Assembly: GCF_021012795.1 (NCBI RefSeq)
Contig: NZ_VFYU01000001.1
Coordinates: 1-64,000 of the forward strand
DNA: 64,000 bases
Reading direction: 5' to 3'
DNA from: Psychrobacter sp. I-STPA10
GTDB lineage: Bacteria > Pseudomonadota > Gammaproteobacteria > Pseudomonadales > Moraxellaceae
In this document: piece by piece, positions 29,353 through 30,624 of the stretch
Position numbering within the stretch: the stretch's first letter is position 1
Layout of the letters: each line of letters starts with the position of its first letter
The notes under the pieces: generated by a model
Told to the model about the DNA's origin: nothing
Database searches by the model: none
Seen by the model: the letters and a program-made list of their open reading frames with translations, nothing else
Program-made: the position numbers and the translations under genes

Positions 29353-29487
29353 TTGGTTATGAATGATTGGTTATGTCTAAACCTACTTAATTAGCCTTTA
29401 TATAAAATAGAAAGAGCAAAAAATACTGCCCTTAATACCTCAGTCCTATATAATCTTATGGCATTAAATATATAGGATTGGGTCATT

Positions 29488-30252
29488 ATGCAAAGCGGAA
29501 AAGTTAAACATTATAATGAAGATAAAGGCTATGGCTTTATTGATGTGGATAATCAAAGTGAAGATGTATTTTTTCACATCAGTAAATGGAAATTGTCGCA
29601 ACCACCTCAGGTAGGACAACAAATTTATTTTGATAGTCAAAGAAATGATAAAAACCAACTGCGAGCCACAAAAGTAACGGCAACGCCAAACAACCAATCG
29701 TCGTCAACTTCTGGTACAAAACGACACTCTTCATCGCAAAACCAGCAGAACCGACAGTATCGCAATCAGTATCAAAACCAGCACAAAAAAAATAATCCCA
29801 AAAAAGGGATATTAAGCACTGTATTTAGCTTAATTATTTTGCTTGCCATTGCTGTTTATGCCTTTCCTAATTTAAAAGCCAAGTTTTTTCAGGACAATGA
29901 TTCAGCTAATACGACAACACAGTACACCTCTACATCGTCCTCATCACAGCCCACCACTAATACACAAAGCAATACAATTACTGGTGACCCACAGGTTGAC
30001 CAGACCATCCATCTAATCCAACAAGGTGGACCTTTTCCCTATCCAGAAAAAGATGGCACGACCTTTTATAATCGAGAGGGTAAGCTACCGCAAAAAAGCC
30101 GGGGCTATTATAAAGAATATACTGTACCGACGCCGGGGGTGTCTCATCGTGGGGCAAGACGTATTGTGACAGGGGGGTATCCGCCAGAGGTGTATTATCT
30201 CACTGTTGACCATTATGAAACCTTTAAAAAGTTAAATGTAGAGGCACCGTAA
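29488..30252 (+). CDS. Cold-shock domain - membrane helix - RNase Sa-like ribonuclease fusion
   Basis: The 254-residue protein joins three parts. Residues 1-65 are a cold-shock domain with RNP1 (KGYGFIDV) and RNP2 (DVFFHIS). Residues 66-105 are a Gln/Asn/Ser-rich basic linker. A membrane helix follows (about 107-127, preceded by KKNNPKKG, so N-terminus inside). After a Ser/Thr linker, residues 168-250 closely resemble secreted guanyl-specific ribonucleases of the RNase Sa/barnase class: GPFPYPEKDGTTFYNRE, GYYKEYTVPTPG, RGARRI and DHYETF. The catalytic triad is complete by alignment (Glu210, Arg225, His242). Orientation predicts an outside RNase and inside nucleic-acid-binding domain. The next gene, abutting without a gap, encodes a barstar-like inhibitor. 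Confidence 0.85.
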   Translation: MQSGKVKHYNEDKGYGFIDVDNQSEDVFFHISKWKLSQPPQVGQQIYFDSQRNDKNQLRATKVTATPNNQSSSTSGTKRHSSSQNQQNRQYRNQYQNQHKKNNPKKGILSTVFSLIILLAIAVYAFPNLKAKFFQDNDSANTTTQYTSTSSSSQPTTNTQSNTITGDPQVDQTIHLIQQGGPFPYPEKDGTTFYNREGKLPQKSRGYYKEYTVPTPGVSHRGARRIVTGGYPPEVYYLTVDHYETFKKLNVEAP

Positions 30253-30624
30253 ATGCAAAACGAAATACAAAACAAAATGCAAAGTCAATCAAACCAAGCC
30301 ATTATTTATATTGATGCAAATAATCCTGATGCCATGAATACCCTACCTAAGCAGGTGACGCATTTACTTATTAAAGAAGTCGTTGATAAACAAACCTTGC
30401 TGACAAGTTTGGCACAGGCGGGGGAGTTTCCCAGTTATTTTGCCCATAATTGGGACAGTGCATGGGATTGCCTAACCGATAGTAATATTGAACATTTAGT
30501 CCTTAATCTTAGTGCGGTCAACAAGATAAATACCGAGGACTTTAATACCTTTAAAAACCTGATTGAAGATGCTTATATGGATTTTGGTAAGCCTCAACTT
30601 TGGGTAATCGTAGCAGGTGATTAA
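30253..30624 (+). CDS. Barstar-family ribonuclease inhibitor
   Basis: The 123-residue product resembles barstar: FPSYFAHNWDSAWDCLTD carries the inhibitory-helix residues equivalent to barstar Asp35, Trp38 and Asp39 (here D68, W71, D72), and the C-terminal beta strand LWVIVAG is kept. Its ATG follows the stop codon of the ribonuclease fusion with no spacer, indicating coupled expression. It should bind and block the RNase domain in the cytoplasm before membrane insertion, as barstar does for barnase; this is inferred from family and position. The first 15 residues are Gln/Asn-rich. Confidence 0.88.
   Translation: MQNEIQNKMQSQSNQAIIYIDANNPDAMNTLPKQVTHLLIKEVVDKQTLLTSLAQAGEFPSYFAHNWDSAWDCLTDSNIEHLVLNLSAVNKINTEDFNTFKNLIEDAYMDFGKPQLWVIVAGD

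What the first reader, a model, noticed from the sequence alone, without database searches (positions are those of the whole stretch)
29488..30624. Cold-shock domain fused via a membrane helix to an RNase Sa-like toxin, with abutting barstar
Seen: RNP1/RNP2, a single membrane helix with positive-inside flank, all three RNase Sa catalytic positions (E210, R225, H242), and a barstar homologue starting right after the stop. Known: barnase/RNase Sa are secreted and barstar protects the cell. The tethering of RNA-binding CSD (inside) and RNase (outside) in one chain is not an arrangement I know. Possible roles: RNA uptake processing, surface-displayed contact toxin, or RNA scavenging in competent cells.
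Basis: partly seen in the sequence, partly recalled or inferred. Interest (0 to 1): 0.82.

Follow-up and report, generated by a model that had tools for sequence, protein, structure and literature searches.

The report
Membrane-anchored cold-shock/RNase fusion with inhibitor
Most Psychrobacter species examined carry one membrane protein with an RNA-binding cold-shock domain predicted inside the cell and a barnase-like RNA-cutting enzyme predicted outside, followed at once by the gene for that enzyme's inhibitor; the parts are familiar, but this combination, kept intact by selection, was not found described in the papers searched.

Summary
The 254-aa ORF (29488-30252) is a cold-shock domain (CSD), a basic linker, one membrane helix (108-126) and an RNase Sa/barnase-type domain with all three catalytic positions; a barstar homologue starts at the next base. 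It is no frame error: 77 of 83 Psychrobacter genomes with this RNase family have both domains in one ORF, CSD and RNase are under strong purifying selection while the linkers drift, and barstar is found in the same 83 of 105 genomes. The usual locus is proA - fusion - barstar - gltS; four RNase-less species keep barstar relics there.

The same fusion occurs in another gammaproteobacterial genus (2 genomes). The other 49 relatives examined lack a CSD; 44 have an export-type hydrophobic start. Membrane-tethered CSDs are a wider theme (CSD-helix-Excalibur, CSD-DUF1294).

Best reading: an inner-membrane-anchored periplasmic guanyl RNase whose cytoplasmic end is an RNA-binding CSD, with cytosolic barstar protecting the cell before export. 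Sidedness, activity and the CSD's role are inferred; cleavage of the helix is not excluded. Against strict need: one genome lacks the CSD, two have it split off, one has no barstar. The contact-toxin idea finds no support.

The parts
29474..29477 (+). Shine-Dalgarno-like AGGA, 10 nt before the ATG
   Evidence: sequence; one of five permissive SD-like words lies in the 20 nt before the ATG in 73 of 76 homologues
29488..30252 (+). CSD - membrane helix - RNase fusion gene (254 aa + stop)
   Evidence: both domains in one ORF in 77 of 83 genus genomes with PF00545
29488..29685 (+). cold-shock domain, residues 1-66 (RNP1 29524-29541, RNP2 29566-29583)
   Evidence: Pfam PF00313 E 1.5e-12; CSP fold Z 11.7; median dN/dS 0.068
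29686..29808 (+). disordered N/Q/K-rich linker, predicted cytoplasmic, basic next to the helix
   Evidence: pLDDT under 50 for residues 70-114; median dN/dS 0.52 for residues 67-103; K/R mean 4.2 before the helix against 0.4 after it in 78 sequences
29809..29865 (+). single membrane helix, residues 108-126
   Evidence: hydropathy; exactly one helix in 78 of 78 homologues
29866..29976 (+). disordered S/T/Q-rich linker, predicted periplasmic
   Evidence: pLDDT under 50 for residues 126-161; median dN/dS 0.42 for residues 131-163
29977..30237 (+). RNase Sa/barnase-type domain, residues 164-250; E210 at 30115-30117, R225 at 30160-30162, H242 at 30211-30213
   Evidence: Pfam PF00545 E 6.5e-21; RNase Sa3 E 8.1e-23; RNase Sa2 fold Z 11.4; E, R, H invariant in 76 of 76
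30253..30624 (+). barstar homologue, start codon directly after the RNase stop; core FPSYFAHNWDSAWDCLTD at 30427-30480
   Evidence: Pfam PF01337 E 6.8e-13; start 0 or +1 nt after the stop in 75 of 77 homologous pairs; core conserved

Best explanation
It is a barnase/barstar-type RNase-inhibitor pair in which the usual export signal has been replaced by a cytoplasmic cold-shock domain, a basic linker and an uncleaved membrane helix. The CSD is made first and folds in the cytosol; the helix inserts with its basic side in; the RNase is carried across and stays tied to the inner membrane on a flexible leash, where it cuts RNA next to G in the periplasm (RNA from dead neighbours, or RNA trying to enter). 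Barstar, translated from the abutting start codon, stays in the cytosol and blocks any RNase that has not been exported. The CSD is the anchor that keeps the enzyme on its own cell and, since its RNA-binding residues are conserved, probably also binds RNA (its own mRNA or others) at the inner face of the membrane. Shown here: domains, helix, charge asymmetry, catalytic residues, pairing with barstar, conservation and selection. Inferred: sidedness, no cleavage, activity, substrate, and what the CSD binds. Least sure: the biological purpose.
For: Domains and folds. Both domains in one ORF in 77 of 83 genus genomes with PF00545 (one of the 77, L068, begins inside the CSD). One helix, a more positive side before it, and the catalytic pattern in 78 of 78 sequences (78 rows = 77 genomes, one counted twice). 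Median dN/dS CSD 0.068, helix 0.13, RNase 0.052, against 0.52 and 0.42 for the two linkers (76 sequences, 1200 pairs). G14, F17, I18, D26, F28, F29 and H30 of the CSD in 76 of 76, Y15, G16 and V27 in 75 of 76. Barstar in the same 83 of 105 genus genomes, start 0 or +1 nt after the stop in 75 of 77. Of the 51 other loci with a recognised RNase ORF, 49 have no CSD, and 44 of these 49 have a hydrophobic 15-residue stretch within the first 75 residues, as an export signal would. Same fusion in a second genus (L119, L148). Four RNase-less genomes keep barstar relics and no RNase trace at the locus, as expected if RNase without inhibitor is harmful.
Against: The CSD is dispensable in some genomes: G241 (L096) has helix+RNase+barstar with the CSD gone; in G280 (L045) a stop and in G332 (L046) a change of frame divides CSD from RNase, though draft assemblies could err. 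G719 (L148) keeps the fusion with the catalytic residues but has no Barstar match in its genome, so inhibition in the cytosol is not always needed or another inhibitor exists. A permissive small-x-small motif, such as a signal peptidase could use, lies in or just after the helix end in 55 of 76 homologues, so cleavage is not excluded; no signal-peptide predictor was available. Modelling the RNase-barstar contact was inconclusive (mean pLDDT 59.5, pTM 0.41). Topology rests on hydropathy and charge only. No test says what the CSD binds or what the RNase is for; 22 of 105 genus genomes have neither RNase nor Barstar match.
Confidence: 0.57

Rival explanations
1. The helix is a cleaved internal signal peptide: the RNase is released into the periplasm or medium like ordinary barnase, and the CSD-helix stub is only an unusually long N-region.
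For: In G241 the N-terminus is a short stretch plus helix, like a plain signal sequence (L096); a permissive small-x-small motif lies in or just after the helix end in 55 of 76 homologues, including VYA in the window (motif rule recalled); 44 of 49 CSD-less relatives have an export-type hydrophobic start.
Against: In most of these 55 the motif is AVA inside the hydrophobic stretch, followed by large residues such as VYFFGD, not the usual place; CSD and its RNP residues are under strong purifying selection, not expected of a mere leader.
Confidence: 0.25
2. A toxin-antitoxin-like module acting in the cell: the RNase domain meets cytosolic RNA, the CSD steers it to cold-shock or other mRNAs, and barstar is the antitoxin.
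For: RNase and barstar are found in the same 83 of 105 genomes; abutting genes; CSD RNA-binding residues conserved; barstar relics outlast the RNase in four genomes.
Against: One helix with a more positive side before it in 78 of 78 puts the RNase on the far side from the CSD; G719 would carry an unopposed cytosolic RNase; 77 of 83 genomes keep one conserved form, mostly at one locus, which is unlike the patchy spread of most TA modules (recalled).
Confidence: 0.12
3. A contact-dependent or polymorphic toxin displayed to neighbours, with barstar as immunity protein.
For: Barnase domains and barstar are used that way elsewhere (PMC3482391, passages); G307 has an RNase tip on a 1457-aa protein (L111).
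Against: Pfam shows no delivery repeats or processing domain in the fusion and there is no variable tip: the RNase is the most conserved part; one copy per genome.
Confidence: 0.04
4. A frame or assembly error that joins two genes.
For: None found.
Against: 77 genomes carry the same fusion, and it recurs in another order.
Confidence: 0.01

Closest known systems
RNase Sa / barnase family (Pfam PF00545) with barstar (PF01337)
   Same: Fold, catalytic residues, inhibitor gene close downstream in many relatives
   Different: 44 of 49 CSD-less relatives examined have an export-type hydrophobic start; here an N-terminal CSD and a membrane helix are predicted to put the two ends of one chain on opposite sides of the membrane
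CSD-membrane helix-Excalibur proteins of Acinetobacter-like genomes (genus of G044; name recalled) and of G378
   Same: N-terminal CSD, linker, single helix, small outer domain
   Different: Outer domain is Excalibur (PF05901), not an RNase; no barstar match in their loci L128-L147
CSD-DUF1294 membrane proteins (also in this genome, L005)
   Same: CSD at the N-terminus of a membrane protein; the CSD of one, from the same family as G495, groups with the fusion CSDs in a weak tree
   Different: DUF1294 in place of an enzyme domain; more hydrophobic stretches (by eye)
Polymorphic toxins with Tox-Barnase and Imm-Barstar (PMC3482391, passages)
   Same: Barnase-type RNase followed by barstar
   Different: No trafficking or repeat modules; not polymorphic

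Membership tests
Barnase/RNase Sa family (PF00545) | Sequence match above the curated cut-off | tested here: met
   75.1 bits against a cut-off of 24
Barnase/RNase Sa family (PF00545) | Catalytic Glu, Arg, His | tested here: met
   E210, R225, H242 aligned with E54, R69, H85 of RNase Sa (counted by hand); invariant in 76 of 76
Barnase/RNase Sa family (PF00545) | Microbial RNase fold | tested here: met
   RNase Sa2 Z 11.4, rmsd 2.5 A, 87 residues
Barnase/RNase Sa family (PF00545) | Secreted by an N-terminal signal peptide | tested here: not met
   A CSD is at the N-terminus and the only hydrophobic helix is at 108-126; whether that helix is cleaved is open. A difference of export, not of fold
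Barnase/RNase Sa family (PF00545) | Guanyl-specific RNase activity | not testable with these tools
   needs an assay
Barstar (PF01337) | Match above cut-off | tested here: met
   48.8 bits against 23.4
Barstar (PF01337) | Interface residues (Tyr29, Asp35, Trp38, Asp39 of barstar; numbering recalled) | tested here: met
   Y62, D68, W71, D72 in the aligned stretch (a weak match, E 0.08). In 83 barstar sequences (81 genus genomes, L006 as a repeat, and L022 of another genus) both Asp are in 83 (78 fit a pattern that demands them, 5 read by eye) and Trp in 81 (Tyr in L110, L022)
Barstar (PF01337) | Binds and inhibits its neighbour RNase | tested here: inconclusive
   read-through model of RNase plus barstar had pTM 0.41
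Cold-shock domain (PF00313) | Match above cut-off, RNP1 and RNP2, CSP fold | tested here: met
Cold-shock domain (PF00313) | Binds single-stranded nucleic acid | not testable with these tools
   needs an assay
Polymorphic/contact-dependent toxin | N-terminal trafficking or repeat region and a variable toxin tip | tested here: not met
   254 aa, no such region in Pfam; RNase is the most conserved part
Type II toxin-antitoxin module | Toxin acts in the cytosol of the producer | tested here: inconclusive
   charge pattern argues against it; no localisation data

The most novel reading that the evidence does not exclude
A CSD-helix module serves as a general membrane-spanning RNA-handling device: the inner CSD binds RNA at the membrane and the interchangeable outer part (RNase here, Excalibur in Acinetobacter-like genomes, DUF1294 elsewhere) acts on the other side, so that one chain holds or senses RNA inside while processing RNA outside.
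Probability: 0.13. Interest if true: 0.85.

Novelty: new variant of a known kind. Interest (0 to 1): 0.55.

Why it matters
Barnase/barstar is a textbook secreted enzyme and inhibitor. Most species of a genus have kept a version tied through the membrane to an RNA-binding domain, which asks why a cell would hold an RNase on the outer face of its own inner membrane and an RNA-binding domain beneath it. Natural variants (without CSD, with CSD split off, without barstar) and easy lab strains make each part's role directly testable.

Tried and rejected
Frame error: rejected by conservation. Contact or polymorphic toxin: rejected for the fusion itself. Competence link through the YifB/ComM-type neighbour: that neighbour was found in 1 of 54 loci besides the window (L104). 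Mobile element: no match covering 80% of the protein in 72,556 plasmid records (16 partial ones); none in 50,697 phage records; none confirmed in viral contigs, a search that reaches close relatives only. Anti-phage defence: PADLOC gave a CSD model (E 1.1e-8) and two hits over the linker region (E 0.005 and 0.015), none to the barstar protein. A conserved 5' leader: the 33 upstream regions shown looked unlike each other by eye. Complex model: inconclusive. Pattern scan: promoter-like sites 2 against 5.8 in shuffles; terminator-like sites 3 against 1.1 (sd 1.1), two on the minus strand and one inside the barstar gene; not pursued. First RNase tree (67 rows) did not join L119 to the other fusions; the tree did after I dropped 10 rows (L012, L015, L111, L112, L124, L125, L126, L149, L156, L165: badly cut out, or long-branched). 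In the CSD tree canonical Csp rows were meant to be included, but my pattern found none; it neither shows nor rejects one CSD clade (p-AU 0.41).

Full report
What is there. The ORF at 29488-30252 encodes a 254-aa protein and the ORF at 30253-30624 a 123-aa protein, stop and start codon abutting. Pfam finds a cold-shock domain at residues 3-65 (E 1.5e-12), the Ribonuclease family PF00545 at 165-249 (E 6.5e-21) and Barstar in the second protein (E 6.8e-13), all above the curated cut-offs. The best solved relatives are RNase Sa3, Sa2 and Sa (E 8.1e-23 to 3.5e-20 for the first 18 rows) and, for the N-terminus, cold-shock proteins. A predicted structure (35-row alignment, mean pLDDT 65.5, both linkers under 50) has a confident CSP fold at 1-66 and an RNase Sa fold at 162-252. 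One hydrophobic helix lies at 108-126.

Conservation. PF00545 was found in 85 of 348 genomes of the family and in 83 of the 105 genus genomes (genus size). The closest named relative is Psychrobacter sp. I-STPA6b (92% identity, L006), from which I take the genus name. Of the 83, 77 have CSD and RNase in one ORF (78 rows, L006 and L104 being the same contig); one of them, L068 (G310), begins inside the CSD. The other six: G241 without a CSD (L096), G280 and G332 with CSD and RNase in separate ORFs (L045, L046), G321 with a run of unknown bases (L110), G329 close to a contig end (L049), and G307, a 1457-aa protein with an RNase tip (L111) that is a different thing. All 78 rows have exactly one helix, a more positive side before it (mean K/R 4.2 against 0.4 after it, mean D/E 0.3 against 2.5) and the E...R...H pattern.

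Selection. In 76 sequences (L006 and L068 dropped) and 1200 random pairs, median dN/dS was 0.068 for the CSD, 0.13 for the helix region (104-130) and 0.052 for the RNase, against 0.52 and 0.42 for the two linkers; pS was about 0.65-0.74, near saturation, so the values are rough, and 49% to 82% of the pairs gave a ratio. Of the RNP residues, G14, F17, I18, F28, F29 and H30 are in 76 of 76 and K13, Y15, G16 and V27 in 74 or 75 of 76; E210, R225 and H242 are in 76 of 76. So CSD and RNase are both kept by selection in one chain.

Barstar. PF01337 is found in the same 83 of 105 genus genomes as PF00545 (the two lists compared by eye). The start codon lies 0 or 1 nt after the RNase stop in 75 of 77 pairs, which suggests translational coupling. 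The core that in barstar meets barnase (recalled) is kept: both Asp in 83 of 83 sequences and Trp in 81 (78 fit a pattern that demands the Asp, 5 read by eye). A model of the RNase-barstar pair was inconclusive.

Neighbourhood, gain and loss. Of 54 loci checked (L059-L112, among them the toxin-like L111 and L112), 43 have proA upstream and gltS downstream, 7 count as proA only, 4 neither (names); the loci L021-L050 were too short for this. The window and its near relative are exceptions, with a nitroreductase-like gene (name recalled) and a YifB/ComM-type gene; gltS lies on another contig of the window's genome without proA within 1.5 kb upstream. In 23 genus genomes searched at proA (22 without PF00545, plus G307), of which 22 have about 1.4-1.5 kb after proA in hand, gltS follows in 15. 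No CSD or RNase trace was found there, but four (L209, L212, L215, L218) keep barstar relics (E 1e-9 to 1e-3), two of them with stops in the matched stretch. So at least these lost the pair, and the inhibitor's remains outlast the RNase's, as expected if the RNase harms a cell without inhibitor. On a proA tree (71 rows, 22 without the fusion, quick method) presence changes 3 times at the least.

Outside the genus. PF00545 matches were found in 15 of 369 genomes drawn from the class, 3 of 32 of the order of G495 and 35 of 398 drawn from the phylum; these samples overlap and include the window's genome. With the loci (L007-L020) and L022, 55 loci were scanned for CSD, RNase and barstar ORFs, and 52 had a recognised RNase ORF. 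CSD fusions were the window itself (L122) and two genomes of one other genus: G495 (L119, 223 aa, barstar 2 nt downstream) and G719 (L148, 225 aa, no barstar beside it). Pfam confirms both domains in each. Eight matches had no locus and were not looked at. Of the 49 others, 44 have a hydrophobic stretch in the first 75 residues. G719 has no Barstar match in its whole genome (about 100% complete in 10 contigs); a tRNA-like stretch, read by eye, follows. With 57 rows (20 of the Psychrobacter fusions, L119, L148 and 35 others) the 22 fusion RNases are one side of a branch, support 99/81 (after dropping 10 rows; with 67 rows had not joined L119). This favours one origin of the fusion and later transfer, without proving it.

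Membrane-tethered CSDs as a theme. The genus of G044 (Acinetobacter-like; name recalled) has CSD-helix-Excalibur proteins, often beside stand-alone CSD genes (Pfam on two), and G378 has one too (L238). CSD-DUF1294 proteins made up 9 of the 10 CSD proteins scanned, which were chosen among the best matches; the window's genome has one. A CSD-helix profile over 369 genomes of the class matched nearly end to end only in G000 (twice), G495 and G378 among the rows listed, the list being capped. So the CSD-helix part is not unique to the RNase fusion, but joined to an RNase it is rare.

What it most likely does. Anatomy suggests CSD in the cytosol, RNase in the periplasm, barstar in the cytosol. Barstar then protects against RNase that fails to leave, as for secreted barnase (established knowledge, recalled). 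Keeping the enzyme on the membrane would limit its action to RNA that reaches the cell's own periplasm: food, or foreign RNA. If instead the helix is cleaved, the RNase is an ordinary periplasmic or secreted one with an odd leader; a permissive motif for that exists in 55 of 76 homologues. What the CSD adds is the open question. A pure plug or leader would not need conserved RNP residues, so some RNA binding at the membrane is likely; yet G241, G280 and G332 show that the RNase-barstar pair can persist without an attached CSD.

Literature. Nine searches in an open-access library gave no title or abstract on a CSD-RNase-barstar fusion; I saw their listings, and passages of three papers: PMC3482391 (barnase-barstar pairs and polymorphic toxins), PMC11090510 (CSDs in CoCoNuT systems, no such fusion in the passages) and PMC5112248 (irrelevant). 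Most subscription papers are not held.

Verdict. Real, conserved, under selection; a new variant of the barnase/barstar kind with an unusual membrane-linked CSD. Function and sidedness await simple experiments.

Noticed in passing
L148:1123-1800: CSD-helix-RNase fusion with intact catalytic residues in a genome (G719) without any Barstar match.
   Followed up: partly
L096:2805-3305: Psychrobacter genome G241 has helix+RNase+barstar but the CSD is missing, the first residues MQSGK being kept: a natural CSD deletion.
   Followed up: partly
L045:1021-1788 and L046:1013-1776: Two draft genomes have the CSD and the helix-RNase part in separate ORFs (one in-frame stop, one frame change).
   Followed up: partly
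L209:1090-1221, L215:1134-1283, L212:1162-1311, L218:1151-1315: Barstar relics after proA in four RNase-less Psychrobacter genomes, two with stops in the matched stretch.
   Followed up: partly
L111:2646-7429: G307 carries a 1457-aa protein with a C-terminal PF00545 domain and a 136-aa ORF directly behind it with a weak Barstar match: polymorphic-toxin-like.
   Followed up: no
L112:2007-8417: G044 has a 2136-aa ORF with a weak RNase match.
   Followed up: no
L128-L147: CSD-helix-Excalibur genes, in several loci next to stand-alone CSD genes of about 97 aa and a divergent CSD-like ORF of about 127 aa.
   Followed up: partly
L178:1480-1734: A second, short barstar-like ORF (84 aa) elsewhere in the window's genome, with no PF00545 match beside it.
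   Followed up: no
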